Assembly: GCA_944381265.1 (NCBI GenBank)
Contig: CALWKN010000195.1
Location: 1-32,185, forward strand
Source: an uncultured Clostridia bacterium
Lineage (GTDB): Bacteria > Bacillota > Clostridia > Christensenellales > UBA1750
Reading direction: 5' to 3'
DNA length: 32,185 nt
Below are positions 1 through 32,185 of the stretch, piece after piece. Every line of letters starts with the position of its first letter. Within the stretch, counting starts at the first letter, position 1. A program made the translations under genes and the position numbers. Under the pieces are notes generated by a model. It was given only the letters and a program-made list of their open reading frames with translations, had not been told where the DNA came from and searched no databases.

Positions 1-1086
1 CGGACGGAGTTGGCGCTGCCGCAGGAGAGCTCGCCGGAAGCGGGGGACGGAATGTCCGCCCCGGCGCAGTCCCCCGCGCGCGCCCCCGCCCCCGCTCCGG
101 CGGGAACGCTTTTGACGCGCTGGGCGCAGGCGCTGCTGACAAGAGAACTCCGGCATGCGGACGCCCCGGGCGGCAGCGCCCCGGCCCGCGCGCTGCCGCC
201 CATTCCCACCGACGCGCCCGGCAGGCCCGCGGCGGCGCGCATCGCCCCGCCGCGCATCGCGGCAGTGCGGCAGGGGGACGTGTTCTGGCAGAGCATTTTT
301 CGCACGGAGCTGGCCCTGGCGCAGGAAAACGCGCCGCAGACCGGCTCGCGCGCTGCGCAGACGCGCCCCCTGCGGACGCTGGCGGCGGCACAGGCCAACA
401 CGGCTCCCGGCCTGGCGGCGGCGCTGCGGCGGGGGCTGGAGCGGACGGCGCAGCGGGCGGAAGCGCTGCATGCGCCCAGCCGCTACGCCCCCCTGCGCCC
501 GGCGCTGCGCGATATGCACAGCCGCGCCCGCCGCCTGCGCACGGCGGTGGAGGGCCAGGCGGCGATGACGCGCCTTGTCCACAGCCCGCAGGAGCGCGCC
601 CAGCACAGCGCCCTGGAGCTCATCGCCCAGGCGGGCGAGGGCGGCGGGGGCCTGCGCGCCTCGATCCTGACGCAGCCGGCGGAGATCGTCATGCTCGTGC
701 CGCCGACCTACATGAACGCCTACGGCGCGCCCGCGCCCCGGGTGGGCAACCTCAGCTGGGGGCAGGAGGCCGCCGGGCCGGACCGCAGCAGCGGCCGCGC
801 CGCGGTGGAGCTGCTGCGCCGGGCGCAGCAGAAGTTCGGCGCCCCGGCCCGCTACCGCCCGCCGGAGATGGTGCTCAAGGAGCGGGGCGAGGCGACGGGC
901 CGCCTGGCCAGCCAAAGCGCGCCCCAGGCGCCCAGCATCAATCAGGAAATGCGCGCCCGCCGCCGCGTGGAGGAAAAGGCGCGCGTCCAGGACCTGAGCC
1001 CGGCGGAGATCACGCGCATCGTGGACAAGGTCTACCGCAAACTCGAGAGCCGCATCGCCACGGAGTACCGCCGGCGCGGCCTGTAA
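1..1086 (+). CDS. Unrecognised CIS-locus protein, 5' end cut by window
   Basis: The reading frame is open from the first base, so the gene starts upstream; the TTG at 10 is probably not a real start. 361 residues are visible. The N-terminal half is rich in Ala, Pro and Arg and looks poorly structured. The first visible residues (RTELALPQESSPEAG) resemble a stretch 100 codons later (RTELALAQENAPQTG, 301-345), so the protein contains a diverged internal repeat, which also argues for coding sequence upstream. The last ~45 residues are charged and helical (LSPAEITRIVDKVYRKLESR, then a basic end). From memory, similar short helical C-termini occur in proteins encoded just before the LysM gene in other CIS loci; I cannot name a family. 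Location directly upstream of the baseplate block suggests a structural or assembly role. Function unknown. Confidence 0.7.
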   Translation, partial: RTELALPQESSPEAGDGMSAPAQSPARAPAPAPAGTLLTRWAQALLTRELRHADAPGGSAPARALPPIPTDAPGRPAAARIAPPRIAAVRQGDVFWQSIFRTELALAQENAPQTGSRAAQTRPLRTLAAAQANTAPGLAAALRRGLERTAQRAEALHAPSRYAPLRPALRDMHSRARRLRTAVEGQAAMTRLVHSPQERAQHSALELIAQAGEGGGGLRASILTQPAEIVMLVPPTYMNAYGAPAPRVGNLSWGQEAAGPDRSSGRAAVELLRRAQQKFGAPARYRPPEMVLKERGEATGRLASQSAPQAPSINQEMRARRRVEEKARVQDLSPAEITRIVDKVYRKLESRIATEYRRRGL

Positions 1087-1113
1087 GACGGAGAGGGAAA
1101 GGGGGAAGACGGC

Positions 1114-1827
1114 GTGCTCGCAACGTCGCTCGCGCTAAAAAAAGCCAAGCTCACGCCCGAAAAAGGCAAGAGCCTCACCGTGCTCTTCAACCCGGACGAG
1201 TACAGCATTTCGCGCTCGGTCACCTATGCCAGCCACACTGTGCCGGGGCTTGACATCCCCATCGCCCAGTTCATCAACGGCACGGCGGACACGCTGACGA
1301 TGAACCTGTTCTTTGACACCTACGCCGCGCCCGAGGGCGGCGATACCGCGACGCAGCTCTCGCTCCTGGCCGCCAGCGCCCTGCCGGAGGTCGGCAAGCC
1401 CGACGTGCGCAAGTACACCCAGCAGGTCTACGGCATGATGGCGGTCAACGGCGATCTGCACGCCCCGCCCCGCGTCACCTTCGAGTGGGGGAGCCTGAAG
1501 TTCGAGGGCGTGATCACGTCCGTCACGCAGCGCTTTACCAAGTTCACCTACGAGGGCGTGCCCGTGCGCGCCACGCTCGAGGTCACCTTCCAGTCCTGCA
1601 AGGCGCAGGACGCGCAGCTGCGCGAGATGCCGCGCAACTCCCCGGACCGCACCAAGTACAAGGCCCTGCAGGACGGCGAGCAGCTCAGCGCCATCGCCTA
1701 CGCCGAGTACGGCTCCTGCGGCGCCTGGCGGCTCATCGCGCAGGAGAACGGCATCGAGAACCCGCGCGCGCTGCGCTCCGGCCGCACCATACGCATACCG
1801 GCCATGCTGCCGGAGGAGAGCGACTGA
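1114..1827 (+). CDS. LysM-domain tube/baseplate adaptor (Afp7-like)
   Basis: The 237-aa product begins at a GTG preceded by a G-rich Shine-Dalgarno. The N-terminal ~170 residues have the pattern of the CIS/phage tube-baseplate adaptor family, for example LFNPDEYSISRS near residue 26 and FEWGSLKFEGVITSVTQRF near residue 125. A LysM-type module follows at about residues 180-231 (GEQLSAIAYAEYG, then NPRALRSGRTIRIP). In Afp, PVC and phages such as P2 or PBSX, proteins of this layout join the inner tube to the spike/hub. The LysM here probably serves assembly rather than cell-wall binding, because the protein sits inside the baseplate. The next gene is the gpD-like hub, matching the usual Afp7-Afp8 order. 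Length is normal for the family. Confidence 0.88.
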   Translation: MLATSLALKKAKLTPEKGKSLTVLFNPDEYSISRSVTYASHTVPGLDIPIAQFINGTADTLTMNLFFDTYAAPEGGDTATQLSLLAASALPEVGKPDVRKYTQQVYGMMAVNGDLHAPPRVTFEWGSLKFEGVITSVTQRFTKFTYEGVPVRATLEVTFQSCKAQDAQLREMPRNSPDRTKYKALQDGEQLSAIAYAEYGSCGAWRLIAQENGIENPRALRSGRTIRIPAMLPEESD

Positions 1828-1854
1828 CGCGCCATAGGGAGAGGAGGGAGCGCC

Positions 1855-2955
1855 GTGGCGTCGTATGAAGACCTGCAAAAGAAGTACCAGGAGTTCCGCG
1901 TGCCGCAGATCGCGGTGTATGTCGCGGGCAAAAAGCTCGATCTGACCCGGTACCACCTCGTCAGCGCCACCGTGGACGCCACGGCGGAAAACGAGGCCGC
2001 CGGCGTGTGCGAGCTCAGCTTTTCCGGTATATTCGATGCAAAAAACTCCGAGATAGACGCAAGCCTCCTTGGTATTCTGGAGGTCAACAAGAGCCTGGAG
2101 ATCCGCATGGGCTATTCTGCGCCCGTCTGCGTCTTCTATGGCAAGATCGACACGGTGAACGTGGACTTCTCCTTCGGCGAGGAGGACGGGCCCTCCCTGC
2201 GCGTCGGCGGCATCGACGCCAAGGGCCTGCTGATGAAGGCGCGCCAGGACGAGAGCAAGAACCTGGAGTCCACCAAGGAGGTCGTGCAGGCGATACTGGA
2301 CGGCTGCAAGAAGGACGACGCGGCAAAATCCGTCAAGGTCGGCGCGCTGCTCCAGTTTGAGACGCCGCTGCGCCAGGAAAAGACCTCGGACTTCAACTTC
2401 CTGTGCGAGGTGGCGCGGCTGACGAACAGCCGGTTCTTCGTCTCCAACGGCGAGATCGTGTTTGACAATGTGCTAAAGAGCGACAGCGACCGCTGCGTGG
2501 ACCTCGCCTGGGGAAAGAGCCTGATGCGCTTTACCCGCACCGTCGATTTTTCCCACCAGGTCTACAAGGTGATCGTCACCGGCACAAAGAAGGAGGACAG
2601 CGCCGCGCTCAAGGGCGAGGCGACAAAGGCCGGCGTCGCGGGATCCGGGAAGCTCGCCTCCGCCTTCTTCAGCAAGGAAAAGCCGGAGACGGAGATCGAA
2701 AACGCGCTGGCCACGAGCGAAAAGATCGCCGCGGCCATCGCCCAGGCGGAGCTGGACCGCATCGCGCTGGACTTTGTCACCTGCACCGGCGCCTGCATCG
2801 GCCTGCCCGACATCGAGGTCGGCAAGTGGATGAAGATCTCCGGCATGGGAAAGTACGTCGACTCCACGTATTTCGTCTACACGGTCAGGCACATATTCGA
2901 CAGCAACGGCTACATCACCGAGTTTACGCTCAAGAGCGCGAAAATGCCGGGCTAG
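1855..2955 (+). CDS. Baseplate hub protein, phage late control gene D-like (first half of a split VgrG)
   Basis: A GTG start sits behind GGAGGG. The 366-aa product has the layout of Phage_GPD/gp27-like hub proteins: an N-terminal beta-rich region (LEIRMGYSAPVCVFYGKID near residue 81) and a central segment (LRQEKTSDFNFLCEVARLTN, about residues 170-190) typical of the second barrel. The C-terminus (GKYVDSTYFVYTVRHIFDSN) matches the usual family ending. As a trimer this protein would form the hub joining tube and spike. In Afp8 and T6SS VgrG this domain is fused to the gp5-like OB fold; here that part is the next gene, 24 bases downstream. No effector extension is seen. Confidence 0.88.
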   Translation: MASYEDLQKKYQEFRVPQIAVYVAGKKLDLTRYHLVSATVDATAENEAAGVCELSFSGIFDAKNSEIDASLLGILEVNKSLEIRMGYSAPVCVFYGKIDTVNVDFSFGEEDGPSLRVGGIDAKGLLMKARQDESKNLESTKEVVQAILDGCKKDDAAKSVKVGALLQFETPLRQEKTSDFNFLCEVARLTNSRFFVSNGEIVFDNVLKSDSDRCVDLAWGKSLMRFTRTVDFSHQVYKVIVTGTKKEDSAALKGEATKAGVAGSGKLASAFFSKEKPETEIENALATSEKIAAAIAQAELDRIALDFVTCTGACIGLPDIEVGKWMKISGMGKYVDSTYFVYTVRHIFDSNGYITEFTLKSAKMPG

Positions 2956-2979
2956 GCGCGGAAAGGAGGAGCAAAATCT

Positions 2980-3747
2980 ATGAGTCTTAACGGCATCTTT
3001 TCCGGCCGCGGCGCGGGGGGCGAGGGCGGCGGCAACGGCCGCCGCTACGGCGTGGACCTGGCCAAGGTCACCAACATCGACGACCCGGACAAGCTCAACC
3101 GCGTCAAGTGCAAGCGCGTCACCACCGACCCGGACGTGGGCGAGACGGACTGGATGTACGTCTGCTCCCCCATCGCCGGGACGAACTACGGCCTGTACAT
3201 GATGCCCAAGGTGGGGGACCTGGTGCTGCTCTCCTACCTTGGCGGCGACGTGCACCGGCCCTTTGTCATAGGCTCGGTCTGGACAAAGGACGTGGCCGCG
3301 CCCTACAAGATCGAGGGCGGCAAGAACGAGACCTTCGCCTTTAAACTGCCCAGCGGCACGGAAGTCGTCTTTTCCGAGACAAAGGGCAAGGAGAGCGTCG
3401 CCGTCACCACCGCCTCCGGCGCCCGGATGGCCCTGGACGGCGACGGAAAGAAGATCGAGGTGCGCGACAAGGACGGCAAGAACGCCCTCACTATGGATTT
3501 AAACTCCGGCGCGGTGACGGTGAGCGCGGACAAGAAGCTCACGCTTTCGGCCGGGACGCAGGCCAGCATCACGCTCGACGGCTCCTCCGGCAAGGTCGCC
3601 ATAGAGGGCAAGACGGGCGTGGAGATCAAGACCGCGCAGTTCAAGGCCGAGGCCAGCGGCGCCTGCCAGATCAAGGCCAACGGCCAGATGAGCGTGGAAT
3701 CGGGCGGCGTCACCCAGATCAAGGGCACGATGCTCAAACTCAACTAG
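2980..3747 (+). CDS. Baseplate spike protein, gpV/gp5-like OB fold with beta-helix (second half of a split VgrG)
   Basis: The 255-aa product starts at an ATG after AAAGGAGG. A short Gly-rich leader (residues ~7-20) is followed by an OB-fold region at about residues 22-105 (GVDLAKVTNIDDPDKLNRVK, then KVGDLVLLSYLGGDVHRPFV and IGSVW), the signature of phage baseplate assembly protein V and VgrG cores. From ~residue 110 to the end are short alternating beta strands rich in Gly, Lys and Thr (SGAVTVSADKKLTLSAG, SGKVAIEGKTGVEIKTA), expected to form the trimeric beta-helical spike. Its tip should receive the PAAR-like protein, which is encoded about 16 kb downstream. No C-terminal toxin domain is attached. 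Confidence 0.88.
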   Translation: MSLNGIFSGRGAGGEGGGNGRRYGVDLAKVTNIDDPDKLNRVKCKRVTTDPDVGETDWMYVCSPIAGTNYGLYMMPKVGDLVLLSYLGGDVHRPFVIGSVWTKDVAAPYKIEGGKNETFAFKLPSGTEVVFSETKGKESVAVTTASGARMALDGDGKKIEVRDKDGKNALTMDLNSGAVTVSADKKLTLSAGTQASITLDGSSGKVAIEGKTGVEIKTAQFKAEASGACQIKANGQMSVESGGVTQIKGTMLKLN

Positions 3748-3766
3748 CAGACGGAGGAGGGCGAAC

Positions 3767-4186
3767 ATGGACAGCAAGTCGTTTCTGGGGCGGGGATTCG
3801 CCTTCCCCTTCCGCGTGGAGGCGGGCACGGGCAAGGTCGCCATGGTCTCCCACGAGGAGGATATCCGGCAGAGCGTGGAGCTGATACTGCACACCTACCG
3901 GGGCGAGCGCGTGATGCGCCCGGACTTCGGCGCGCGCGTGCAGGACTATCTCTTTGCCGAAAACACCAAGGAGACGGGCTTTGCCCTGGAAAACGAGATC
4001 CGCCAGGCCCTGATCGACTGGGAGCCGCGCATCGACAACATCGAGGTCGAGGCCCATGCCGACGGCACGCGCGCGTCCCTCACGGTGTCCATCTCCTACC
4101 GCGTGCGCTCCACGAACAATATGTTCAACGTGGTCTATCCCTTCTACACGCTGGAGGGGACGGGAATGGAGGGATTTGACGCATGA
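3767..4186 (+). CDS. gp25-like baseplate wedge protein (Afp9-like)
   Basis: The 139-aa protein is the usual size for the GPW/gp25 family. It carries the family core at about residues 27-95: EEDIRQSVELILHTYRGERV, the acidic-aromatic MRPDFGARVQDYLF, and an amphipathic stretch ending in WEPRIDNIEVEA. The conserved EPR of gp25 (here W-E-P-R-I) is intact; in T4 and T6SS TssE this region contacts the first sheath ring and starts sheath polymerisation. The start follows GGAGGAGGGCGAAC. The stop overlaps the next ATG by four bases (ATGA), consistent with translational coupling to the wedge partner downstream. Confidence 0.92.
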   Translation: MDSKSFLGRGFAFPFRVEAGTGKVAMVSHEEDIRQSVELILHTYRGERVMRPDFGARVQDYLFAENTKETGFALENEIRQALIDWEPRIDNIEVEAHADGTRASLTVSISYRVRSTNNMFNVVYPFYTLEGTGMEGFDA

Positions 4187-7137
4187 GGAAGAAGACCCCC
4201 CTGCTCGACGGCCGCGACGAGCGGGCCCTGCTGGAGGAGATCCGCCGCCGCGCCCGCAGCTATGTGCCGGAGTGGAAGAACGACCCCGAGGACATGGACG
4301 GCGGCGGCGCGCTCGCCGCGATCTTCGCCCACCTCTTTTCCCAGACCGTGGACCGCTACGACCGCGTGCTGCACAAGGACTACATCGAGTTCCTGAACCT
4401 CCTGTCCGTGCGCCAGCAGCCCGTCACACCGGCCGAGGGCTATGTGGCCGTGGAGATCGCCCCCGGCACCGAGGAGCCGGTGGAGATCCGGCGCGACACC
4501 GCCCTGTTCCACGACGGCGAGGACGGCGAGCGCATCAGCTATCTTACGGATGAGACGATCTTTGCCACGCCCGCGCGCCTAAGCGGCATGGTCACGGTCG
4601 ATCCCGCCGGGGACGCCATCGCCCTGCGCGGGGAAGGGGAGGAGAGCTTCGACCTCTTTGCCGTGCCGGAGGGCAGGAATCTGCAGCGCCACGCCTGCGT
4701 CCTTCGGCAGGACGAGGTCTTCCGCCTCTCCCGCCCCGCGCGCCTGCGCGTGCAGGTGGGGGACAGCGCCGCCTACCTCGCCCGCCAGAGCGCCGAGCGC
4801 CTGGCCGACCCGGACTTTGCCCTCTGGGAGATCTACGCCGGCGACGCCTGGCGCCCCTTAAACAAGGTGCGCGCCGAAGGCGACGCCGTGGTGCTGGAAA
4901 AGAGCGACGGCCTGCCCGTCTCCCCCTGCCCGGCGCAGGAGGGGGAGGAGATGGACGGCGGCGCCTGCCTGCGCTGCACCATGCGCCGTGCCGGGGCCGA
5001 CGCCCGCCTCAGCGTGCGCTTCCTTCGCGTCTCCAGCGAGTACGCGCAAGGGGAGAGCCTGCCCGCCAGCGAGATCTACGCCAACGATTTGCCCCTGGAC
5101 CAGGAGCGCGGCGGCTACTGCTTTGCGGAGAACATGCTGCCCTACGACGCCTTCTACGTGGCGGCGGACGAGGTGCTGGCAAAGCGCGGCGCGGACGTGA
5201 CGCTGGAATTGGATATGCACATACTTGCGCGCAAGGCGGACCAGGAGGAGGCGCGCTACGACTTCCGCGACAAGATGGTCATCGAGAAGGAGGAGAGCCC
5301 GCCCGAGCCGCCGCGCCGCTACGTCTCCCAGGTGGTCTGGGAGTACTGGAACGGCGCGGGCTGGGCGCACCTGCCGGTGCGCGGGGATGAGAACCCCTTC
5401 GGCGAGGGGGACGATGGCACAAAGCGTCTCACCTTCCGTCTGCCGGAAGACATGGAGCCGACCACCGTCGGCGCGGTGGAGCGCTGCTGGATCCGCGCCC
5501 GCGCAACGCGAGTGGAAAACGCCTTCCACCTCTACGCCACGCGCCTTCTGCCCTTTGTCACGGGCGTCCGCCTCTCCTTCCGCTACAGCGCGCCGCGGCC
5601 GCTCCAGGCGCTTTCGGCGGAGAACAACCTGACGCGCACGGTCTTCCCCGTGGGCGAGGGCGAGGCCGGCGCCACGCTCTATGAGCCGATGGAGGACGCC
5701 CGCCCGGCGCTCTACCTCTGCTTCGACGCCCCGCCGCAGGGGTACCCGGTGACGCTGTACCTGGAGATGGAGGGGCGCAGCCGCAGCGCCCGCCGCCTCG
5801 GGCTGGAGGCCTTCTTCGGCCGCGGCTTTGAGGAAGTCACATTCCGCGACGGCACGCAGGAGGGCACGCACAGCGGCGTGCTGAAGTGCTACCTGCCGCA
5901 GCTGCTCCGTCCGACGGAGCGCTTCGGCCTGTCCGGCTATTTTGTGCGCCTGGTGGACCGGACCGGCCGCGCCCTGCCCGACCACCCGCGCCTGCGCCGC
6001 GCCCTGCCCAACTGCGTCCACGTGACGGAGCGCCAGCAGGCGCCGGAGGCCGTCTTTTCCACTGAGATCCACGAGGCGGGAAAGCGGCTGCGCCTGGACG
6101 AGGGGCCGGTGCTCTTCGCCGAGGTCTGGGTGGACGAGCTGCCGGTTTTGAGCGAGGCGGAGGCGGCAGCCCTGCGCCGCGAGTCCCCGGAGCGCGTGCG
6201 CGCCGAGAACGCGCCGGACGGGCGGCTCTCCCGCCTGTTCGTGCGCTGGGAGCGGGTGCAGAGCCTGGCGCTGTGCGGCCCGCGCGCTCGCGCCTACGAA
6301 CTGGACGCCGAGGACATGCGCATCGACTTTGGCGACGGCGTGCACGGCGCCATTCCCCCCGCCGGAGAGGACAACATCCGCGTCTCCTACGCCTTTGGCG
6401 GCGGCGCGCGCGGCAACATCGGCGTGGACGAGATCAGCGGCATCACCACCGCCGCCGCGGGGATCACGCGCGTCTACAATTTCCTGCCCCTGTCCGGCGG
6501 CAACGACCTGCAGAGCGTGGAACTGGTGGAGCGCCTCGGCCCCAAGCGCCTGCGCCACCGCGGCCGCGCCGTCACCAAGGCGGACTTTGAGTCCCTGGTG
6601 CTGGAGAACTTCTCCGAGGTGCGCGCCGTGCGCTGCTTCCCCAACACCGACGAGGACGGCGCGCGCCGCCCCGGGCACGTGACGGTGGTGCTGCTCAGCG
6701 CCGCCTACGACAACGAGGCGCACGTGCTGGCCATGTGCGAGCGGGTGGAGAAGTACCTGAAAGGGGTGTGCGACAGCCGCCTTGCGCGCGAGGGCCTGCA
6801 CGTGCTGCCGGCGCAGGTGATGACGGTCAGCGTCACCGCCGCGGTGGAGGTGGACAGCCCGGACAACGCCGCCGAGGCCGAGCGCGGAGCGCAGTCCTGC
6901 CTGGACGCGCTGCTCGACCCCGTTTCCCGCCGGGAGGAGAACCCCATCGGCGCGCTGCCGTCGCTGACCGACCTCTACGCCGCGCTGCGGCGCGTGCCGC
7001 ATGTGCAGGCCGTGCGCGACGTGCTGATGGAGGGCAGCTATTTCGACTACAACCGCCGCCGCGTCGTGGCCCTGGACGTGGGCAGCGCCTATCCCTTCGC
7101 CGTGCCCCGCAGCGGCCGCCACGTGCTGCGCATCTAG
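4183..7137 (+). CDS. Baseplate J-like wedge protein (Afp11-like)
   Basis: The 984-aa length fits the large Afp11/gp6-like baseplate protein. The N-terminus (LLEEIRRRARSYVPEW, then FAHLFSQTVDRYDRVLHKDY) is the usual opening of this CIS family. A baseplate-J core lies at about residues 720-830: IDFGDGVHGAIPP, the Gly-rich VSYAFGGGARGNIGVDEIS, and RGRAVTKADFESLVLENFSE followed by VRAVRC. A gp6-like domain completes the C-terminus. It should heterodimerise with the next gene product to form the wedge around the hub. The ATG overlaps the gp25 stop. A large insertion (roughly residues 150-650) is beta-rich and typical of the Afp11 class rather than of short phage J proteins. Confidence 0.9.
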   Translation: MRKKTPLLDGRDERALLEEIRRRARSYVPEWKNDPEDMDGGGALAAIFAHLFSQTVDRYDRVLHKDYIEFLNLLSVRQQPVTPAEGYVAVEIAPGTEEPVEIRRDTALFHDGEDGERISYLTDETIFATPARLSGMVTVDPAGDAIALRGEGEESFDLFAVPEGRNLQRHACVLRQDEVFRLSRPARLRVQVGDSAAYLARQSAERLADPDFALWEIYAGDAWRPLNKVRAEGDAVVLEKSDGLPVSPCPAQEGEEMDGGACLRCTMRRAGADARLSVRFLRVSSEYAQGESLPASEIYANDLPLDQERGGYCFAENMLPYDAFYVAADEVLAKRGADVTLELDMHILARKADQEEARYDFRDKMVIEKEESPPEPPRRYVSQVVWEYWNGAGWAHLPVRGDENPFGEGDDGTKRLTFRLPEDMEPTTVGAVERCWIRARATRVENAFHLYATRLLPFVTGVRLSFRYSAPRPLQALSAENNLTRTVFPVGEGEAGATLYEPMEDARPALYLCFDAPPQGYPVTLYLEMEGRSRSARRLGLEAFFGRGFEEVTFRDGTQEGTHSGVLKCYLPQLLRPTERFGLSGYFVRLVDRTGRALPDHPRLRRALPNCVHVTERQQAPEAVFSTEIHEAGKRLRLDEGPVLFAEVWVDELPVLSEAEAAALRRESPERVRAENAPDGRLSRLFVRWERVQSLALCGPRARAYELDAEDMRIDFGDGVHGAIPPAGEDNIRVSYAFGGGARGNIGVDEISGITTAAAGITRVYNFLPLSGGNDLQSVELVERLGPKRLRHRGRAVTKADFESLVLENFSEVRAVRCFPNTDEDGARRPGHVTVVLLSAAYDNEAHVLAMCERVEKYLKGVCDSRLAREGLHVLPAQVMTVSVTAAVEVDSPDNAAEAERGAQSCLDALLDPVSRREENPIGALPSLTDLYAALRRVPHVQAVRDVLMEGSYFDYNRRRVVALDVGSAYPFAVPRSGRHVLRI

Positions 7138-7164
7138 CCATTACGGAAAAAGCGAGGTGAGCCC

Positions 7165-9216: not shown

Positions 9217-9231
9217 AGGGGAGGGGGAGAC

Positions 9232-12122: not shown

Positions 12123-12151
12123 AACGCCGATTGTAGAAGGAGGAACAGGGC

Positions 12152-12925: not shown

Positions 12926-12973
12926 GCCTTACACACCTGCGCGCCGGCGCAGACAGGGAGGAGAGTTTCGGCC

Positions 12974-15640: not shown

Positions 15641-15663
15641 AACGCGCCCGGGGATCCCAAAGC

Positions 15664-15668
15664 GGAGG
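15664..15668 (+). promoter_or_regulatory. RBS (GGAGG) fixing a TTG start
   Basis: GGAGG lies eight bases before the TTG at 15677. No ATG or GTG in this frame occurs near it, and the N-terminal sequence read from the TTG is a plausible cytoplasmic segment before the membrane helix. This supports TTG as the initiation codon of the MORN-repeat gene. Confidence 0.6.
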
Positions 15669-15676
15669 AAAAGACA

Positions 15677-19998: not shown

Positions 19999-20002
19999 GG
20001 AG

Positions 20003-20009: not shown

Positions 20010-20017
20010 GATCGGCT

Positions 20018-20392
20018 GTGGCCCAGCCCGTCGCCATGGGGGCGATGTGCCAGTGCGCCTTTGGCGTCGCGCCCTGCCCCATCACGGTATCCTCGCAGCA
20101 GACCTGCGTCTCCGGCGCCATGCCGCTGGCCACGATCAAGGACACCGCGGGGCTGATGTTCGGCATGTGCTCCTCGCTGCTCAACCCCGCGGTCGCCGCC
20201 ACCATCACGCCCGTGGGCACGTTTACGCCCATGCCCTGCGCGCCGGTGTTCGTCGGCGTCTGGGCGCCGGGCAGCCCCACGGTGCTCGTCGGCGGCACGC
20301 CGGCGCTGAATGCCAACTCCATGCTCACCTGCGCCTACGGCGGCGTGATCAAGATCTCCTTAAGCACGATTTTTACCGTACAGGTTCCCTAA
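20018..20392 (+). CDS. PAAR-like spike tip protein, DUF4280 type
   Basis: Read from GTG, the product is 124 aa. It has the Cys- and Gly-rich signature of the PAAR-like DUF4280 family: MGAMCQCAFGVAPCPI at the N-terminus, ATIKD, PMPCAPVF and GVWAPGSPTVLVGGTPALNA, and the closing LTCAYGGVIKIS. Such proteins form a small cone, usually metal-stabilised, that sharpens the VgrG-type spike and can carry effectors. Here there is no C-terminal extension, so any cargo would be non-covalent or encoded elsewhere. In Afp the PAAR gene sits next to gp25; here it is ~16 kb away, after the cap gene. Confidence 0.9.
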   Translation: MAQPVAMGAMCQCAFGVAPCPITVSSQQTCVSGAMPLATIKDTAGLMFGMCSSLLNPAVAATITPVGTFTPMPCAPVFVGVWAPGSPTVLVGGTPALNANSMLTCAYGGVIKISLSTIFTVQVP

Positions 20393-20418
20393 ACGACGAC
20401 AGAAAGGCGGAGAGGCGG

Positions 20419-26092: not shown

Positions 26093-26119
26093 AGAACCAA
26101 GAAGGGGGAAATACGGGGA

Positions 26120-27337
26120 ATGAAACACAACGTTTGCAGGCTCCTGATGCTGCTGCTGTGCGCGGCGCTGCTGCTGCCGCTGTGCGCCTGCCAAAGCGGT
26201 GGCGCCGAGGGCGGGGAAGCGAGCGTCGGCGTCACCGTGGGGCAGACGGAGGGCGAGGGCGACATCCCCCCCGCGCTGCAGCCGGACGGCGGCAAGCTGC
26301 GCATAGGCCTTTTGGACATCAACGAGTACGAACCGGCCAGCATCTATCTGTACTACGTTTTGCAGGGTTTAAAAAACGAGGGCTGGATCGAGTTTGACAG
26401 CCTGCCCTTTACCGAGACGAGCATGGACGTCGTTGCCATGGTGCAGGCGCTGTCGGAGATGGACCTTGGGCCGTATGTGGAGTTCGTGGGCGACGCGGCC
26501 TACTACTCCGAGTACCAGAGCGAGGAGGAGATCGTGCAGAGCCTGCGGGCGCACATCGACTCCGAGGAGGGCCTGGACATCATCCTTGCCATGGGCACGG
26601 ACCCCGGCCTCTTCATGCAGCGCCACAGCGACCTGGACATAAACGTGCTGGTCTGCATGGCCACCGACCCCGTGGCCTCCGGCATCATCGACTCCACCGA
26701 GGACAGGGGCGATCCCCAGGTCTGGGCCCAGGTCGAGCCCCTGCCCTATTACCGGCAGATCAAGTTCTACCACAACATCATCGAGTTTGCGAATATCGGC
26801 ATGGTCTACACCGACCCCGTGGTCGTGGCCCTGTCCGACTACCAGCGCGGCGCGGAGGAACTGGGCGTAGAGCTCACCGGCGTGCTCGTGCCCGAGCAGG
26901 GCTCGATGAGCAACGAGGCCTACGCCGACCTTCTGCGCTCCACCTATGAGGACCTGATCGCGCGGGGCGTGGACGCCTATATGCTCAACGCCGACCTCGT
27001 CACAAGCGACATGGATCTCGCCTCCCTGATCGAGCCGTTCCTTGCGGCGGGCATCCCCGTCTTTGTGCAGGACGGCGAAAACTACGTGCGCGACGGCGCG
27101 CTGCTGCTGGTGGCCTCCACCGACAACCAGGGCGTGGGCCAGTTCGTGGCCGAGACCATCGCGCGCGTGGCCACCGGCACGCAGCCGGGCGACATCCCCT
27201 GCGAGTACGTCTCCTCCCCCTACATGAGCCTGAATCTGGACACGGCCAAGCGCATAGGCTTTCGGCCCGGGTTTGAGATCCTGCTCTCGTGCGAGACGAT
27301 CTATTCCTCCGCCGCAGAGGGAGGTGAGGCGGCATGA
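26120..27337 (+). CDS. ABC-type substrate-binding lipoprotein (ABC_sub_bind/TrpX-like)
   Basis: The 405-aa product has a lipoprotein signal peptide: Lys/Arg start, Leu-rich core and lipobox L21-C-A-C24, with Cys24 the likely lipidated residue. An acidic/Gly spacer (~25-55) leads to a periplasmic-binding fold: LRIGLLDINEYEPAS, YYVLQGLKNEGW, DIILAMGTDPGLFM, VLVCMATDPVASGI and a second lobe with NIGMVYTDP and GIPVFVQDGENYVRDGALLL. This resembles the ABC_sub_bind (PF04392) group, some members of which bind aromatic amino acids; the ligand here is unknown. No ABC permease or ATPase gene follows. Its stop overlaps the start of the sensor-MFS gene, so it probably delivers or reports a ligand to that protein. 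Confidence 0.83.
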   Translation: MKHNVCRLLMLLLCAALLLPLCACQSGGAEGGEASVGVTVGQTEGEGDIPPALQPDGGKLRIGLLDINEYEPASIYLYYVLQGLKNEGWIEFDSLPFTETSMDVVAMVQALSEMDLGPYVEFVGDAAYYSEYQSEEEIVQSLRAHIDSEEGLDIILAMGTDPGLFMQRHSDLDINVLVCMATDPVASGIIDSTEDRGDPQVWAQVEPLPYYRQIKFYHNIIEFANIGMVYTDPVVVALSDYQRGAEELGVELTGVLVPEQGSMSNEAYADLLRSTYEDLIARGVDAYMLNADLVTSDMDLASLIEPFLAAGIPVFVQDGENYVRDGALLLVASTDNQGVGQFVAETIARVATGTQPGDIPCEYVSSPYMSLNLDTAKRIGFRPGFEILLSCETIYSSAAEGGEAA

Positions 27338-29760
27338 CAGAGAGCGTCAGGACCGAGATCACCGGCAAGCGCTATAAGACCGTCATCGCCATATTCTGCG
27401 TCTTCCTCTTTGTGACGCTGGCGCTGGTGTCCGTGGTCTGCGTGCTGAGCTTTGACCAGAACTACCGCGAGGTCAAGCAGAGCTATTATTCCGCCATGTG
27501 CGAGCAGGTCATCTCCGACATGGAGACCTCGATCTCCTACGGCAAGCGCATCGACCGCTACTACGGCATCGAGGACGTCTTTGCCCGCACGCAGGCCCTC
27601 TTTGCCGACGAGGCCCGCTTTGAGGTGGCCACGCTCTCCCCGGACGGGCAGGCGCTCAACGCCACCTACGCCGCGGACTCCGTCAGCGCGCAGATCGCCG
27701 CCAGCGACGAGACGCGCCTTGCGATGGAGAGCCTCGCTTCGTCCGGCGGCTACGAGATCCTGAGCCGCGGCGGCTATGAGATGCTGCTCATGCCCGTGCG
27801 CGACGGCGAGAACCTGGCCGGGTTCTTCGCGCTGAGCTATCCTGCCGACGTCTACAGCGCGCAGCGCACCGCCATGCTGCGCGACGCCGCCATTTACCTT
27901 GCCATCGCCTTTGCCGTGGGCGCGGCGGCCATACTCCTCTACGCCGCGGTCATGCACAAGCGCTTCTGGCAGAAGGACGAGAGCACGCGCAAGTTCCTGC
28001 TCTTTGGCGTGCCCTCGGGCATTATCATCGCCTCCATACTCCTCATCGGCGTGATGAACTACCTGCTCTTCCAGGACCGCTACGAGGCCGCCATACGCGA
28101 GGACGCCGCCTCCATCGTCGAGTACGTGCGCGAGACCGCGGACGAACTGTACGAAAAGGGCGTGCCCTATGAGGAGATGTACGGCCTGGACGAGTACCTG
28201 GCCGAAAAGGTGGAGAGCGTGCCGGTGCTGTGGAACCTGCGCGTTTCCTCCGTCGTCTCCGACAGCGACAGCGTGCTCCACCGCCAGAACGACGCGCTGG
28301 TCTCCATCCCGCTGCAGGGCGCGGACGGCACGCTGCTGGTGGAGGCCTTCATCTCCCAGGACTACATCGACGGCAAGATGGGCGAGCTGTTCCTGATGTT
28401 CCTTGCCACGTTCATCTTCTGCATCGTCATCATCGTGGAGATGACCAAGCTCCCCGCCATGATCGACAACCGCAGCCGCAAGGAGTTCAACGAGCCCACG
28501 GAGCAGAACTACGAGCAGATCTCCTCCGGCGTGCGCATCGCCTCTTTCCTGCGGGTGCTGAGCAACTACATGTACTTGCCCTACAGCGCCATGCTCATCA
28601 AGCAGTGGAACCAGGCGGTGGGGGGACTGAGCGTCGGCGTCACCGCCGCCCTGCCCCTTACCATGGAGAGCGCCGGGCAGGTCATCGGCGCCATGCTCTA
28701 CCCGCTGTGGTTCAAGCGCCCGGACAAGCGCAGCCGCCTGTTCTTCACCGCCTGCCTGGGCGTGATGCTGGCGGTCAACGTCGCCTGCTTCCTCACGGGC
28801 TCGGCGCTGATGATCATCGTCATGCGCTTCATCGGCGGCCTGTCCTACTCGGGCTTTATGCACATGCTCAACCTCATCGTCGCCTCCGGCGACGAGAGCG
28901 AGGAGCGCCACCAGATCAACCTGGCCCAGTCCAACGCCGGCATCATCGGCGGCATCATGTGCGGCGCGGGCATCGGCGCCATCGTCGCGGCGCTGGCCGG
29001 GTATGCCTTCTCCTACATCATCTCCGCCGCCATGTTCCTGCTCTTTGGCGTCTTTGTGCTGCGCATGCTGCCCTGGCGCCTGCTGGAGCGCAACGCCGTG
29101 CTCAAGGAGCGCCAGATCGCCGGGGCCGAAGAGGAGCCGAAGTTCAGCCTCCTGGACTACGTCAAGGTCGTCTTCTCCCCGCGCGTGCTGCAGTACTTCC
29201 TGCTGGTCATGCTGCCCATCTGCTTTGGCGACATCTACATCGTGACGCTCATCCCCTCCATGGCCGACGCCCAGGGAAGCACCATCCTGCTCTCCTACTG
29301 CTACATCTTCAACGGCATCGCCGGGTTCTACTTCGGCCCCAAGCTCGTGGAGCTGCTGGGCAAGCGCCTGGGCAACAGCCTGTGCCTGGTGCTGGTCATG
29401 GCGCTTGCCGCCGTGGCGCTGGTGGTGCTGGGCATGCCGCCTTTCTCGGTGACGGTGTTGGTGGCATCGACTTTGCTTGGCATGTTCGACGGCTTTGGCA
29501 GCCCGATGTGCACGGACGGCTTCCTCGCCATTCCCACGCTCAAGAACCGCATGACCGAGGTCTCGGCCCTGGCCGTGTACTTTACGCTCAGCAACGTCAT
29601 CTCCGTCGTGGCCCCGGTCATCATCGAGGTCATCACCGAGGGCAACATCAGCGTCGCGCTCTTCGCGCTCTCGGGCGTGTACCTGGCCTGCGCCGCCGTC
29701 TTTGCCGCGCTCAGCGGCTTTGCCTCCATCGGCCGCCGGCGCCGCGGGGCCGCCGCCTGA
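27334..29760 (+). CDS. Two-sensor membrane module fused to an MFS transporter
   Basis: The 808-aa product starts within the previous stop (ATGA overlap). N-terminal half: TM1 (~15-39), a Cache/CHASE-like domain (~40-182, with YGKRIDRYYGIEDV at 69-82), TM2 (~184-207), TM3 (~220-245), a second extracytoplasmic domain (~247-348, with KGVPYEEMY from residue 275) and TM4 (~350-371). From ~400 onward are about twelve hydrophobic helices with MFS features: YLPYSAMLIKQWNQAVGG, MRFIGGLSYSGFMHML, QSNAGIIGGIMCGAGIGAIV and SYCYIFNGIAGFYFGPKL. The sensor half parallels the whole 352-aa protein at 20419. The fusion suggests ligand-gated transport or a transporter-shaped receptor. The substrate may be whatever the neighbouring lipoprotein binds. 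Confidence 0.83.
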   Translation: MTESVRTEITGKRYKTVIAIFCVFLFVTLALVSVVCVLSFDQNYREVKQSYYSAMCEQVISDMETSISYGKRIDRYYGIEDVFARTQALFADEARFEVATLSPDGQALNATYAADSVSAQIAASDETRLAMESLASSGGYEILSRGGYEMLLMPVRDGENLAGFFALSYPADVYSAQRTAMLRDAAIYLAIAFAVGAAAILLYAAVMHKRFWQKDESTRKFLLFGVPSGIIIASILLIGVMNYLLFQDRYEAAIREDAASIVEYVRETADELYEKGVPYEEMYGLDEYLAEKVESVPVLWNLRVSSVVSDSDSVLHRQNDALVSIPLQGADGTLLVEAFISQDYIDGKMGELFLMFLATFIFCIVIIVEMTKLPAMIDNRSRKEFNEPTEQNYEQISSGVRIASFLRVLSNYMYLPYSAMLIKQWNQAVGGLSVGVTAALPLTMESAGQVIGAMLYPLWFKRPDKRSRLFFTACLGVMLAVNVACFLTGSALMIIVMRFIGGLSYSGFMHMLNLIVASGDESEERHQINLAQSNAGIIGGIMCGAGIGAIVAALAGYAFSYIISAAMFLLFGVFVLRMLPWRLLERNAVLKERQIAGAEEEPKFSLLDYVKVVFSPRVLQYFLLVMLPICFGDIYIVTLIPSMADAQGSTILLSYCYIFNGIAGFYFGPKLVELLGKRLGNSLCLVLVMALAAVALVVLGMPPFSVTVLVASTLLGMFDGFGSPMCTDGFLAIPTLKNRMTEVSALAVYFTLSNVISVVAPVIIEVITEGNISVALFALSGVYLACAAVFAALSGFASIGRRRRGAAA

Positions 29761-29793
29761 TCGCGCACTTGACAGAAGAAAGGGGGGCCGCAT

Positions 29794-31839
29794 ATGCCGG
29801 GTTATGCCGATAACGCCGAGTTCCTCGCCGCCGCGCAGCGCTTTGTGGACGCGCTCCTGCGCGCGGCGCTGGCACGGCGGGCGTCCGCAGGCGCTTCCGG
29901 CGTGCTGGAAGAAGCCGCCGCGGCGCTGGCCCAGCCCCGCCCCCTGCCGGACGCCGCGCTGCGGCGCGCCTATTCCGAGCTCTTTGCCCGCGGCGCATCG
30001 GGGGAAACGCCGCCCTTCCATGCGCTCTGCGAGCTGTTGGAGCTGGGGCCCTTCGCCCGCTTCTGCGCCCTGCTTGCGCTCTGCTCTGCCCTGGACGGGC
30101 GGTACGAGGCCGCCTACGCCGCCCTGAGCTTTGGCGGCGCGCAGGCGGAGCCGACGCTGGGCGTCGCCCTGGAACTCTACGCCTTTTTGGAGAAACCGGA
30201 CCTGGCGGAAGCGGCGGAGCTCTTTGCCGACGAGCGCTCCGGCGCCGCCTACGCCTTTGCCCGCCCGGCACAGACCGGCCCGCGCGCCGTGCTGCGCCTG
30301 GGGGAAAAGGCCCGGCTCCTGGCGCTGGGCTCCGCCGCCCTGTCCCCCGCCGCCGCCCGCTATGCCGCGGCGCTGCCGCCCGACGGCGCGCCCCTGCCCT
30401 ACGGCCTGGCGGAAAAGCGCCTGCCGGAGCTGCTGCTGCGCCTGCTGGACGGCCCGCGCAACGCCGTGGTGCAGCTCGTCGGCCCGCGCGGCTCCGGCCG
30501 CACGCGGACGCTGCGCCACTTCTGCGCCGAGTCCGGGCTGGGGCTGCTGGCGGTGGACTGCCCGCGCGTGTTTTCCAGCGGCGAGGACCTGGCCACCCTT
30601 GCTGCCGCCCTTGCCGCCGAGGCGCTGCTGGGCGGCTCGCTGCTGCTGCTGTACGCCCTGGACGAGGGCGGCGACGAGGCGGGGCGCATACGGCTCTGCG
30701 AGGAGCTGAGCCGGCGATTGAAGGTGGTGCTCCTCGCCGCCGAAGACGTACAGAGACTGCCGCGCGCGCTGCAGACACTGCGTGTGGACTTCCCCGCGCC
30801 GAGCGCCCGCCTCGCCCGTTCGATCTGGGAGGACGAGCTGCGCGCCCGGCCGAGGGAGCCGCTCTCGCCCCGCGAACTGGCGGACAAATACCCGCTGCCC
30901 CCCGGCCAGGTGCGCGAGGTGCTGGACCGGGCGGAGCTGGAGGCCGCGCTGCACGGCGAGACGCGCCTGAGCCGCAGCCGCATCGTCGCCTCCGTGCGCG
31001 GCGGCGCGGCGCGCACGCTGGAAGGCCAGGCCCGCCGCATCAACGCCTTCTACACCTGGGAGGACCTGGTCGTGTCCTCCGACACGCTGCGCGAGCTGCG
31101 CCTCTTTGCCGACAGGGTGCGCCTGCGCGCCCGCGTCATGGAGGACTGGAACTTCCAGAGCCGCCTGGCCTACGGGCGGGCCGTCTCGGCGCTGTTCTAC
31201 GGCGTGCCGGGCACGGGCAAGACCATGGCAGCGCAGGTGCTGGCCCACGACCTGGATCTGGACCTCTACCGCGTGGACTTAAGCCAGATCCTGAACAAGT
31301 ACGTGGGCGAGACGGAGAAGAACCTCGGCCGCATATTCGACGCCGCGGCCGGCTGCGGCGGCATCCTCTTCTTTGACGAGGCGGACGCCCTCTTTGCCAA
31401 GCGCACGGAGATCGCCGACAGCAAGGACAAGTACGCCAACGCCGAGACCGCCTTCCTGCTGCAGAAGATCGAGGAGTTCGACGGCCTGGTGATACTGGCC
31501 ACGAACCTGGCCTATAACTTTGACGACGCCTTCAAGCGCCGCATCAACTACATGGTCCGCTTCTCCGTGCCGGACGAAGAGCAGCGGCGCGAGCTCTGGG
31601 AGAAGGTCTTCCCGCCGGAGACGCGCGCCGGGGAGCGGCTGGACCTGGATTTCCTGGCAGAGAATTTCGAGTTCACCGGTTCGACCATCAAGTCCATCGC
31701 CGTCTCCGCCGCCTACATGGCCGCGTCCGACGGCGGGGAGATCGAGATGCGGCACGTCATCCGCGCCCTGAAGCACGAGGTGCAAAAGAGCGGCGGTCTG
31801 CTCATCAAGTCCAAGCTCCGCGAGTACGACGTGGAGTAG
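29794..31839 (+). CDS. AAA+ ATPase (Afp15-like), second of two paralogues
   Basis: The 681-aa protein has the same design as the ATPase at 21464. An N-terminal helical region (~1-200) precedes a degenerate P-loop GPRGSGRT (230-237, with Arg236 in place of Lys). A complete AAA+ domain follows, with Walker A GVPGTGKT (470-477), Walker B ILFFDE (524-529), ILATNLAYNFDDAFKRRINY (sensor 1 and arginine-finger region) and a C-terminal helical lid. The shared block around SQILNKYVGETEKNLGRIFD is nearly identical in the two proteins, while the N-terminal parts differ. They may form a mixed ring or act on different partners. The ATG follows GAAAGGGGGGCCGCAT. Confidence 0.87.
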   Translation: MPGYADNAEFLAAAQRFVDALLRAALARRASAGASGVLEEAAAALAQPRPLPDAALRRAYSELFARGASGETPPFHALCELLELGPFARFCALLALCSALDGRYEAAYAALSFGGAQAEPTLGVALELYAFLEKPDLAEAAELFADERSGAAYAFARPAQTGPRAVLRLGEKARLLALGSAALSPAAARYAAALPPDGAPLPYGLAEKRLPELLLRLLDGPRNAVVQLVGPRGSGRTRTLRHFCAESGLGLLAVDCPRVFSSGEDLATLAAALAAEALLGGSLLLLYALDEGGDEAGRIRLCEELSRRLKVVLLAAEDVQRLPRALQTLRVDFPAPSARLARSIWEDELRARPREPLSPRELADKYPLPPGQVREVLDRAELEAALHGETRLSRSRIVASVRGGAARTLEGQARRINAFYTWEDLVVSSDTLRELRLFADRVRLRARVMEDWNFQSRLAYGRAVSALFYGVPGTGKTMAAQVLAHDLDLDLYRVDLSQILNKYVGETEKNLGRIFDAAAGCGGILFFDEADALFAKRTEIADSKDKYANAETAFLLQKIEEFDGLVILATNLAYNFDDAFKRRINYMVRFSVPDEEQRRELWEKVFPPETRAGERLDLDFLAENFEFTGSTIKSIAVSAAYMAASDGGEIEMRHVIRALKHEVQKSGGLLIKSKLREYDVE

Positions 31840-31848
31840 CCCACAGAC

Positions 31849-31854
31849 AGGAGG
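31849..31854 (+). promoter_or_regulatory. RBS (AGGAGG) fixing a TTG start of the last gene
   Basis: AGGAGG lies eight bases before TTG at 31863, which opens a frame that stays open to the window end. The next in-frame ATG (31968) has a much poorer upstream site. Confidence 0.6.
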
Positions 31855-31862
31855 GAGAAACC

Positions 31863-32185
31863 TTGACCCAGATAACGACAGCCCCGGTCCGCAGATACGA
31901 CCAGGAGCAGCAGAGGATCCCCAATTTTTTGCGGGTCAACGGTCAGGCGCCGCGGGAAGTGCAGACGCAGATGGCACAGGCGGAGCGGCAGAGGCGCTAT
32001 ACGGGCGGGCAGATCGGCGAGGAAGGCGCCGTGCCCAGCGCCTGGCGCGGACGGGCCGCAAGCCCCATGGCGCGCGCCAACAAAGTCCACGACGAGGAGA
32101 GCTTTACCCAGTTTTTCCAGCAGGCCATGCAGGACGCGCGCCGCGACGACATCGCCCGCGCCTATATGGCCTACAGCAAGACGGA
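31863..32185 (+). CDS. Unrecognised protein, 3' end cut by window
   Basis: A frame starting at TTG, 23 bases after the second AAA+ gene, is open to the end of the window (107 codons visible). The visible part is hydrophilic and rich in Gln, Arg and Ala: QITTAPVRRYDQEQQRIP at the start, EVQTQMAQAERQRRYTGG, and the helical ESFTQFFQQAMQDARRDDIA near the edge. No signal peptide, membrane helix or known domain is visible. The strong ribosome binding site and tight spacing argue that it is real and belongs to the same unit. A helical structural or scaffold protein is possible, but nothing in the sequence decides this. Confidence 0.6.
   Translation, partial: MTQITTAPVRRYDQEQQRIPNFLRVNGQAPREVQTQMAQAERQRRYTGGQIGEEGAVPSAWRGRAASPMARANKVHDEESFTQFFQQAMQDARRDDIARAYMAYSKT

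What the first reader, a model, noticed from the sequence alone, without database searches (positions are those of the whole stretch)
1..32185. CIS locus interleaved with an envelope-sensing module
Baseplate, cap, spike-tip and AAA+ genes of an Afp/PVC-type injection system are co-oriented and tightly packed with at least six membrane or exported accessory proteins (12974, 15677, 17750, 20419, 26120, 27334). Classic Afp/PVC loci encode free particles without such genes. The layout suggests a CIS anchored to, or triggered from, the cell membrane, with its own signal-perception machinery. The grouping is seen; the mechanism is inferred.
Basis: partly seen in the sequence, partly recalled or inferred. 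Interest (0 to 1): 0.8.

Follow-up and report, generated by a model that had tools for sequence, protein, structure and literature searches.

The report
Injection machine with built-in membrane receptor
A family of phage-tail-like injection machines in Clostridia travels with its own membrane receptor complex, built partly from enzymes that seem to have lost their catalytic residues, which suggests the machine is held at the cell's own membrane and fired from there instead of being released as a free particle.

Summary
The window, one whole 32 kb contig, is a tightly packed co-directional run of contractile injection system (CIS) genes and six membrane or exported proteins. The accessory set splits in two. 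The core, g10-g13 (12152-18643), follows the baseplate gene g09. Among loci with enough contig it was found in 72 of 76 (g10), 65 of 67 (g11) and 57 of 58 (g12); the genomes of the nine loci without g11 all have one elsewhere. The set at 20419, 26120 and 27334 is optional but CIS-enriched. g10 is predicted to be a protein-kinase fold without catalytic residues. g11 is predicted as extracellular beta-propeller, Cache-like sensor, HAMP and class III cyclase fold; 0 of 63 CIS-linked copies keep the first metal-binding Asp or the base-binding Lys, whereas three CIS-free homologues of like architecture keep all five residues checked. I infer a receptor-scaffold that docks the baseplate at the cytoplasmic membrane and passes on an envelope signal by conformation. 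This is a new variant of membrane-linked CIS (compare Streptomyces CisA, cyanobacterial tCIS, haloarchaeal T6SS). Docking and firing are inferred, not shown. Ten literature searches listed no description of it.

The parts
1..1086 (+). g01, C-terminal part of a large protein cut by the contig end (1051-1611 aa in six of seven longer loci, 178 aa in the seventh); function unknown
   Evidence: no Pfam hit
1114..1827 (+). g02, CIS tube-type protein with LysM-like end (Afp7-like, name recalled)
   Evidence: Pfam CIS_tube E 2e-33; weak LysM model match
1855..2955 (+). g03, VgrG N-terminal-like hub
   Evidence: NCBIfam VgrG_rel E 4e-13, below cut-off
2980..3747 (+). g04, spike (baseplate V / VgrG C-terminal part)
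   Evidence: Pfam Phage_base_V E 3e-21
3767..4186 (+). g05, gp25-like sheath initiator
   Evidence: Pfam GPW_gp25 E 9e-26
4183..7137 (+). g06, baseplate wedge (Afp11-like)
   Evidence: Pfam Baseplate_J E 6e-6; TIGR02243 E 3e-39, below cut-off
7165..9216 (+). g07, second baseplate wedge
   Evidence: Pfam Baseplate_J E 3e-17
9232..10350 (+). g08, Tail_P2_I / CIS12-like baseplate protein
   Evidence: Pfam Tail_P2_I E 1e-4; NCBIfam CIS12_fam E 7e-26, below cut-off
10347..12122 (+). g09, CIS13-like protein in the fibre position, with an Ig-like C-terminal region (Ig-like reading partly recalled); no predicted TM
   Evidence: NCBIfam CIS13_fam E 2e-25, below cut-off; profile 512-590 matches chain 7quz, E 7e-4
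12152..12925 (+). g10, pseudokinase-fold protein with strongly basic C-terminal helix (C-terminal TM helix in divergent relatives)
   Evidence: AF2 pLDDT 93; Foldseek and VIA to kinases; catalytic residues absent; C-terminal charge
12974..15640 (+). g11, receptor: extracellular beta-propeller-like domain, two TM, Cache-like domain, TM, HAMP, catalytically degenerate class III cyclase domain, helical C-terminus
15677..17749 (+). g12, bitopic protein, N-terminus in, extracellular MORN repeats and C-terminal domain
   Evidence: Pfam MORN E 9e-26; topology in relatives
17750..18643 (+). g13, exported helical protein; fused behind g12 in many Oscillospiraceae loci
   Evidence: signal peptide by sequence; weak OEP match below cut-off; fusions
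18659..19246 (+). g14, DUF4255/Pvc16 tail terminator (cap)
   Evidence: Pfam Pvc16_N E 3e-25
19243..19998 (+). g15, conserved protein with carboxypeptidase-regulatory-like N-terminus
   Evidence: weak Pfam match below cut-off; 56 of 80 loci
20018..20392 (+). g16, DUF4280 PAAR-like spike tip (GTG start)
   Evidence: Pfam DUF4280 E 1e-23; 51 of 53 loci with room
20419..21477 (+). g17, membrane sensor-like protein without output domain (optional module), homologous to the N-terminal part of g21
21464..23485 (+). g18, AAA+ ATPase (Afp15-like, name recalled)
   Evidence: Pfam AAA E 1e-29, WHD
23555..26092 (+). g19, alanine/serine racemase domain fused to about 470 aa of unknown kind (optional module)
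   Evidence: Pfam Ala_racemase N and C; no hit for the C-terminal part
26120..27337 (+). g20, substrate-binding lipoprotein (optional module)
   Evidence: Pfam ABC_sub_bind E 4e-10; lipobox by sequence
27334..29760 (+). g21, sensor-like N-terminus fused to an MFS transporter (optional module)
   Evidence: Pfam MFS_1 E 1e-16; g17 profile E 4e-15
29794..31839 (+). g22, second AAA+ ATPase of the g18 type
   Evidence: Pfam AAA E 4e-29, WHD
31863..32185 (+). g23, start of a protein cut by the contig end (a 1777 aa ORF of the nearest relative matches 64 residues at 39%)

Best explanation
The locus encodes a Clostridia-type CIS that acts from the producer's own cytoplasmic membrane. g10-g13 form a dedicated membrane receptor-scaffold. 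g11 senses an envelope or extracellular ligand with its propeller-like and Cache-like domains and passes a conformational change through HAMP to a cyclase-fold domain that no longer makes a nucleotide messenger. g10, a dead kinase, is the cytoplasmic adaptor; g12 and g13 extend into the wall. The dead-enzyme domains dock the baseplate, most likely at the CIS12/CIS13-like proteins g08 and g09, and release or trigger it when the signal arrives. g17, g20, g21 and g19 add a second, optional ligand-sensing input. Shown: gene content, order, conservation, predicted folds, loss of catalytic residues. Inferred: contact with the baseplate, location of particles, trigger and direction of firing.
For: Co-occurrence: g10 in 72 of 76, g11 in 65 of 67, g12 in 57 of 58 loci with room; 60 of the 64 loci that hold g09-g12 have them in this order on one strand. 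The nine of 80 loci without g11 lie in genomes that have a g11 elsewhere, E 5.1e-86 or lower. In an even sample of 391 Clostridia genomes, 8 have a true g09; a g11 match is on the same contig in 8 of 8 (weak, E 1e-18 to 1e-36, in G392, G332 and G262) and g10 next to g09 in 6 of 8. Of 31 near relatives, g10 and g11 occur only in G000, G008 and G016, all with CIS genes, and in none of four congeners. The module sits where eCIS loci usually hold tail fibres and where Streptomyces has cisA (PMC12237407, passages). Topology: 4 TM in 58 of 65 g11, one TM in 57 of 62 g12 with the positive side at the N-terminus in 55 of 62, C-terminal TM in 6 of 70 g10 and a basic C-terminus in 60 of 64 of the rest. 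CIS-linked g11: 0 of 63 keep D1 or K and none keeps more than 3 of 5 residues; CIS-free homologues G234, G260, G370 keep all five. g10 lacks HRD-Asp and DFG-Asp in 64 of 64. g08 and g09 resemble CIS12 and CIS13, the two tCIS proteins that touch or cross the membrane (PMC8894136, passages). Distance matrices of g10 and g11 correlate with CIS core genes (0.86-0.96) about as those do among themselves (0.91-0.98) over 46 loci.
Against: No interaction, localisation or phenotype was tested. Tree correlations can reflect shared organism history. g09 has an Ig-like C-terminus that could serve a free particle as a fibre. Three loci (L079, L080, L086) lack g10-g12 next to g09, L072 lacks g10, in L083-L085 g11 lies after g15, and in L081 g10 is on the other strand. 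The g11 copies found only were not checked for catalytic residues. Dead enzymes can also regulate expression or a partner enzyme. A HAMP-SpoIIE phosphatase near one Lachnospiraceae locus is compatible with ordinary regulation.
Confidence: 0.6

Rival explanations
1. The module controls expression or assembly of an otherwise free, released CIS: a membrane signalling complex that acts upstream of transcription or of effector loading, without touching the particle.
For: Sensor architecture; a HAMP-SpoIIE phosphatase near the locus in Lachnospiraceae MA2020; eCIS loci can carry regulators (PMC8213781 section 10).
Against: Pfam finds no DNA-binding or intact catalytic output domain in g10-g13 of the window; two relatives of g11 pass the cyclase cut-off (L078, L081) but lack the catalytic Asp. 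g09-g13 stay together with the cap gene g14 even where the locus is split.
Confidence: 0.2
2. Streptomyces-like self-directed use: particles are free in the cytoplasm and are recruited to the membrane by g10-g13 under envelope stress, firing through the producer's membrane and killing it (regulated cell death), not a docked weapon.
For: Same gene slot as cisA, which is needed for contraction and stress-induced death in S. coelicolor; its outer domain resembles solute-binding proteins (PMC12237407, passages). Here a substrate-binding lipoprotein g20 is found in 5 of 80 loci, a lower bound because flanks were 10 kb.
Against: No sequence comparison with CisA was made; the number and kinds of proteins differ. 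It is a variant of the best explanation, separated from it only by where particles sit at rest.
Confidence: 0.15
3. Chance or passive linkage: the membrane genes are ordinary envelope genes next to a mobile CIS island.
For: g17, g20 and g21 were found in only 5-8 of 80 loci and a g20-g21 pair occurs without CIS genes in the stretch of G494.
Against: g10-g12 stay next to g09 in nearly all loci with room, with changes of order only in the most distant ones; g10, g11 and g21 are absent from CIS-free near relatives.
Confidence: 0.05

Closest known systems
Streptomyces coelicolor CIS with membrane protein CisA (type IId eCIS; PMC12237407, passages seen)
   Same: Gram-positive producer; membrane protein encoded just downstream of baseplate genes; outer sensor-like domain proposed; needed for firing there
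   Different: CisA is one bitopic protein; here four conserved proteins with propeller-like, Cache-like, HAMP, dead cyclase and dead kinase folds; homology to CisA not tested
Haloarchaeal T6SS (Halogeometricum borinquense; PMC11566945, passages seen)
   Same: eCIS-type genes used in a membrane-docked, contact-dependent way; clade-specific conserved membrane protein; its Cis11 is closest to Bacillota homologues according to the paper
   Different: Putative anchor Hbor_38620 has six TM helices and a ~150-residue cytoplasmic domain; the passages I saw describe no receptor-like module
Thylakoid-anchored CIS of Anabaena (tCIS; PMC8894136, passages seen)
   Same: CIS12- and CIS13-like proteins (g08, g09)
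   Different: Cis13 carries its own TM helix and Cis12 an extension; g09 has no predicted TM, and separate membrane proteins are present instead
Afp/PVC extracellular CIS (compared from recall and Pfam names only)
   Same: Core parts: DUF4255 cap, AAA+, baseplate J, gp25, spike
   Different: Membrane receptor-scaffold genes in the same run; no clear Afp13 homologue among the window's Pfam/NCBIfam hits
T7SSb pseudokinase EssB/YukC (recalled; start of abstract of PMC9600267 seen in the listing)
   Same: Kinase fold without catalysis in a membrane secretion complex of Gram-positives; some g10 have a kinase-then-TM layout
   Different: EssB was not among the structure rows listed; a likeness of layout only

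Membership tests
eCIS (Afp/PVC-type gene set) | Core set: baseplate J proteins, gp25, spike, DUF4255 terminator, AAA+ ATPase | tested here: met
eCIS (Afp/PVC-type gene set) | Phage-type contractile sheath (PF04984) in the genome | tested here: met
   own genome C181, 651 aa frame, separate contig; 28 of 28 other CIS genomes have at least one match, some of which may be prophage sheaths
eCIS (Afp/PVC-type gene set) | Afp13-like tail fibre | tested here: inconclusive
   g09 matches CIS13_fam over 9-147 below the cut-off
eCIS (Afp/PVC-type gene set) | Release as a free particle | not testable with these tools
   needs microscopy
Canonical T6SS (i-iii) | TssJLM membrane complex | tested here: not met
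   no such Pfam family among the 24 ORFs of the window scanned; the window is a partial locus and the rest of the genome was not searched for it
tCIS | CIS13 with a TM helix | tested here: not met
   no hydropathy TM in g09
tCIS | CIS12 and CIS13 homologues | tested here: inconclusive
   E 7e-26 and 2e-25 but far below family cut-offs
Streptomyces CIS with CisA | CisA homologue | not tested
   no CisA sequence was compared
Streptomyces CIS with CisA | Membrane protein gene just downstream of the baseplate genes | tested here: met
   g10-g12 follow g09; the g10 reading frame opens a median 4 bp after the g09 frame ends
Haloarchaeal T6SS | Hbor_38620-type six-TM anchor | not tested
   sequence not compared; predicted topology of g11 (4 TM) differs
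Class III adenylyl/guanylyl cyclase | Fold | tested here: met
Class III adenylyl/guanylyl cyclase | Metal, base and transition-state residues | tested here: not met
   D1 0 of 63, K 0 of 63; none has all five
Protein kinase | Fold | tested here: met
Protein kinase | Catalytic Lys and two Asp | tested here: not met
   K near its place in 2 of 64, each Asp in 0 of 64; register set by hand from the model's strands

The most novel reading that the evidence does not exclude
A receptor adenylyl cyclase and a kinase were taken over, lost catalysis, and became a mechanical trigger: a transmembrane firing complex that lets a Gram-positive cell keep a CIS docked at its membrane and fire it on an envelope signal, in effect a T6SS-like system of monoderm bacteria built independently of TssJLM.
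Probability: 0.45. Interest if true: 0.88.

Novelty: new variant of a known kind. Interest (0 to 1): 0.7.

Why it matters
What triggers a CIS from the producer's side is open. This family gives a conserved candidate trigger, with a ligand-binding outside and dead-enzyme adaptors inside, in Clostridia from gut, rumen and other habitats (by record titles), including two strains with complete chromosomes (Anaerotruncus colihominis DSM 17241, Oscillibacter valericigenes Sjm18-20). It makes the question testable by single gene removals. If right, it extends membrane-operated CIS to a large Gram-positive group and offers a clean case of two signalling enzymes turned into scaffolds within one machine.

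Tried and rejected
Prophage origin: g09 and g11 have no tblastn match in 50,697 phage records and the g09 alignment found no relative in viral contigs, so I did not pursue it. Active second-messenger enzyme: rejected for the 63 CIS-linked g11 examined, by residue loss. Pfam on 64 g10 members gave only chance-level hits, so structure was used. EssB was not listed among the structure matches, which does not exclude it. g19 C-terminal part: no Pfam or PDB hit. PHROGs hits of g11 and g12 are unnamed families on the HAMP/cyclase and MORN regions. Literature: ten searches; I saw the listings only (20-25 rows where hundreds to thousands matched) and passages, sections or outlines of seven papers: none described a pseudokinase, MORN or HAMP-cyclase membrane module in a CIS locus. 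A DOI that I recalled for the 2019 eCIS database paper (Chen et al.) is not held, so prior mention there is not excluded.

An error of mine: the g16 model and protein 8 were read out of frame (start 20020); those g16 marks are void and were replaced. Results that limit my reading: the 80 loci are the best 80 of 224 relatives, and two of them (L065, L066) come from one MAG; the class sample overlaps the named loci (G432 has the contig length of L063's record, G372 that of L085's); in the g09 class search 27 of 35 matching genomes are weak matches (E 5e-11 or higher) that I dropped; one of the eight kept, G202, has an in-frame stop in g09; G485 lacks g09 but has other CIS-type genes, so 8 is a lower bound and the g17 test counts it as CIS-free; the g11 profile also hits many other HAMP proteins (187 of 391 at 1e-10), so only high-scoring or CIS-neighbouring matches were used; of seven shorter HAMP-cyclase homologues in genomes of the same order without g09, four keep D, K, D, N with Lys for Arg and three have lost one or more. 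Alignment of the divergent g11 of G262, G332 and G392 is weak. TM calls are simple hydropathy; gene calls outside the window come from my own script.


Full report
What is in the window. The window is contig C195 of an unnamed, 88% complete Clostridia assembly, whole (32,185 bases). I took 23 ORFs as genes, all on the + strand, with gaps of -14 to 69 bp. g02-g08 are CIS tube-type protein, hub, spike, gp25, two baseplate-J proteins and a Tail_P2_I protein. g08 and g09 match NCBIfam CIS12 and CIS13 with E 7e-26 and 2e-25, well below the families' cut-offs. g14 is the DUF4255 cap, g16 a DUF4280 PAAR-like tip (start corrected to 20018), g18 and g22 AAA+ ATPases. A sheath gene is on another contig of the same genome.

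The accessory proteins.

Do they co-occur with the CIS? A g09 alignment found 224 relatives in a collection of 84,980 genomes and the best 80 loci were kept. By record title they come from Oscillospiraceae, Lachnospiraceae, Christensenellaceae, Desulfosporosinus, Heliorestis, Syntrophomonadaceae and others. Profiles of each window gene give much the same order in most: g02-g09, g10, g11, g12, g13 (often fused to g12), g14, g15, then g16 and g18. Of the 64 loci that hold g09, g10, g11 and g12, 60 have them in this order on one strand; in L083-L085 g11 lies after g15 and in L081 g10 is inverted. Counting only loci with enough contig after g09: g10 72 of 76, g11 65 of 67, g12 57 of 58, g14 53 of 55. 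The nine loci without g11 lie in genomes that all carry a strong g11 elsewhere (two further genomes served as positive controls and were found). In Syntrophomonadaceae L080 and L086, g20 and g21 take the place right after g09. In Herbivorax (L078, G166) and a Hungateiclostridiaceae bacterium (L087, G171) the cluster is split in two convergent runs, g09-g15 in one and g02-g08 in the other.

Do they occur without the CIS? g07 is in 3 of 151 near relatives, the window's genome included. In the nearest 31, g10 and g11 occur only in the window's genome, G008 and G016, and g21 only in the first two. G016, a 51% complete assembly, gave no g07 match but its 5.7 kb contig reads g08-g09-g10-g11. Four congeners and the other genomes lack them; g12 was not tested in this set. 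In 391 Clostridia genomes, eight have a true g09 (E 4e-96 or lower). A g11 match lies on the same contig in all eight (in G501 some 32 kb away, in G202 on the opposite strand next to g09; weak in G262, G332 and G392), and g10 is beside g09 in six. G485, without a g09, has g12, g14 and g15 matches near a sensor-MFS-like protein on a short contig, so the CIS count is a lower bound. The g17 profile hits 4 of 391, three of them with g09 (Fisher p 2e-5, with G485 counted as CIS-free); the fourth, G494, has g20 and g21 with a 246-residue protein between them and no CIS match in the 20 kb read.

What the core proteins are. g10: the AF2 model from 64 sequences has pLDDT 93 and pTM 0.87. It is a protein-kinase fold by Foldseek and by VIA-align (Z 14.9, rmsd 3.2, 205 aligned to NEK7; Z 14.5, rmsd 3.9, 207 aligned to the intracellular domain of Rv3910). 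The places of the catalytic Lys (2 of 64 have K nearby), HRD-Asp (0 of 64) and DFG-Asp (0 of 64) are empty (register read by hand from the strands). Six divergent members carry a TM helix after the kinase part (6 of 70); 60 of 64 others end in a 35-residue stretch of net charge +5 or more. g11: pLDDT 86.5, pTM 0.61. The elements are a beta-rich outer domain (41-319), two TM helices, a mixed outer domain at 419-521, TM, HAMP and a class III cyclase fold. In the viral structure library the model matches NHL, WD40 and propeller proteins by name (aligned ranges not given). Two divergent relatives match sCache weakly, below cut-off, and the profile also matches a chemotaxis receptor over 427-586. 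The cyclase part matches 3r5g (target TM 0.76; Z 20.3, rmsd 2.1, 175 aligned). The first metal-binding Asp is kept in 0 of 63, the base Lys in 0, and no member keeps more than three of five residues (22 keep none, 30 one, 10 two, 1 three). Three homologues in genomes without g09 and with like length and TM pattern (G234, G260, G370) keep all five. In a tree of this domain these three branch with the CIS copy of G202, inside the span of the CIS copies (local support 0.81). This fits recruitment of an active receptor cyclase followed by loss of catalysis, possibly more than once. g12 has one TM near residue 70 with the positive side at the N-terminus in 55 of 62, which would put the MORN repeats outside.

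How it most likely works. A sensor whose output enzyme is degenerate in every CIS-linked copy examined, beside a dead kinase, is easier to read as a conformational coupler than as a second-messenger switch (inference). The module sits where eCIS loci usually hold tail fibres and where Streptomyces has cisA, the membrane protein required for contraction (PMC12237407, passages). CIS12/CIS13-type baseplate proteins contact or cross the membrane in the Anabaena tCIS (PMC8894136, passages) and are proposed to in the haloarchaeal T6SS, whose Cis11 is closest to Bacillota homologues (PMC11566945, passages). g09 has no predicted TM helix of its own, so a separate membrane partner is needed if docking occurs. 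I therefore favour a membrane-docked CIS fired through g11. The optional set g17/g20/g21 with g19 looks like a second ligand input: g17 and the g21 N-terminus are homologous, and in one genome (G171) a g11-type outer part is fused to the MFS part of g21; G485 carries a 998-residue protein of similar TM pattern with a g21 match. This supports a shared sensing role but not a mechanism.

What stays open. No localisation, interaction or phenotype was tested; direction of firing, target and ligand are unknown. Conserved linkage does not tell docking from regulation. Papers: of PMC12237407, PMC8894136, PMC11566945, PMC10598620, PMC12923769 and PMC13314943 I saw passages; of PMC8213781 the outline, section 10 and passages; of PMC7394362 the outline with abstract; others in listings only.

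Noticed in passing
window 23555-26092: Alanine/serine racemase domain fused to about 470 residues with no Pfam or PDB match; g19 matches of about racemase length sit near g20-g21 in Herbivorax (G166, 378 aa) and Syntrophomonadaceae (L080, cut by the contig end), so a racemase-type enzyme is CIS-linked there.
   Followed up: partly
G171 (about 49462-52479 of the stretch joined) and L157: Roughly 1000-residue proteins near CIS genes with an MFS domain; the one of G171 has a g11-like outer part.
   Followed up: partly
L125:9026-12247: G225, without a true g09, has a protein with a g10-like domain, TM and LysM next to a divergent gene for a g11-like outer domain alone: the g10-g11 pairing may be independent of the CIS.
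   Followed up: partly
L099:16881-18812: HAMP-SpoIIE phosphatase about 3.3 kb behind the CIS AAA+ gene in Lachnospiraceae MA2020.
   Followed up: no
L104:7066-8943: 626-residue protein with an eCIS_core (DUF4157) domain right after g20: a likely cargo protein.
   Followed up: no
L108:490-1245: GNAT acetyltransferase between g17 and g20; Desulfosporosinus has a protein of similar size (259 aa) in the same place, not itself scanned.
   Followed up: no
window 21464-23485 and 29794-31839: Two AAA+ ATPases of the same type in one locus; the seven longer loci show one each in the stretch held.
   Followed up: no
window 1-1086: g01 is the conserved C-terminus of long proteins (1051-1611 aa in six of seven longer loci) placed before g02; tape measure or cargo, undecided.
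   Followed up: no
L144:2912-3677: g10 appears split into two frames in G016 (81 and 178 aa), assembly error or decay.
   Followed up: no
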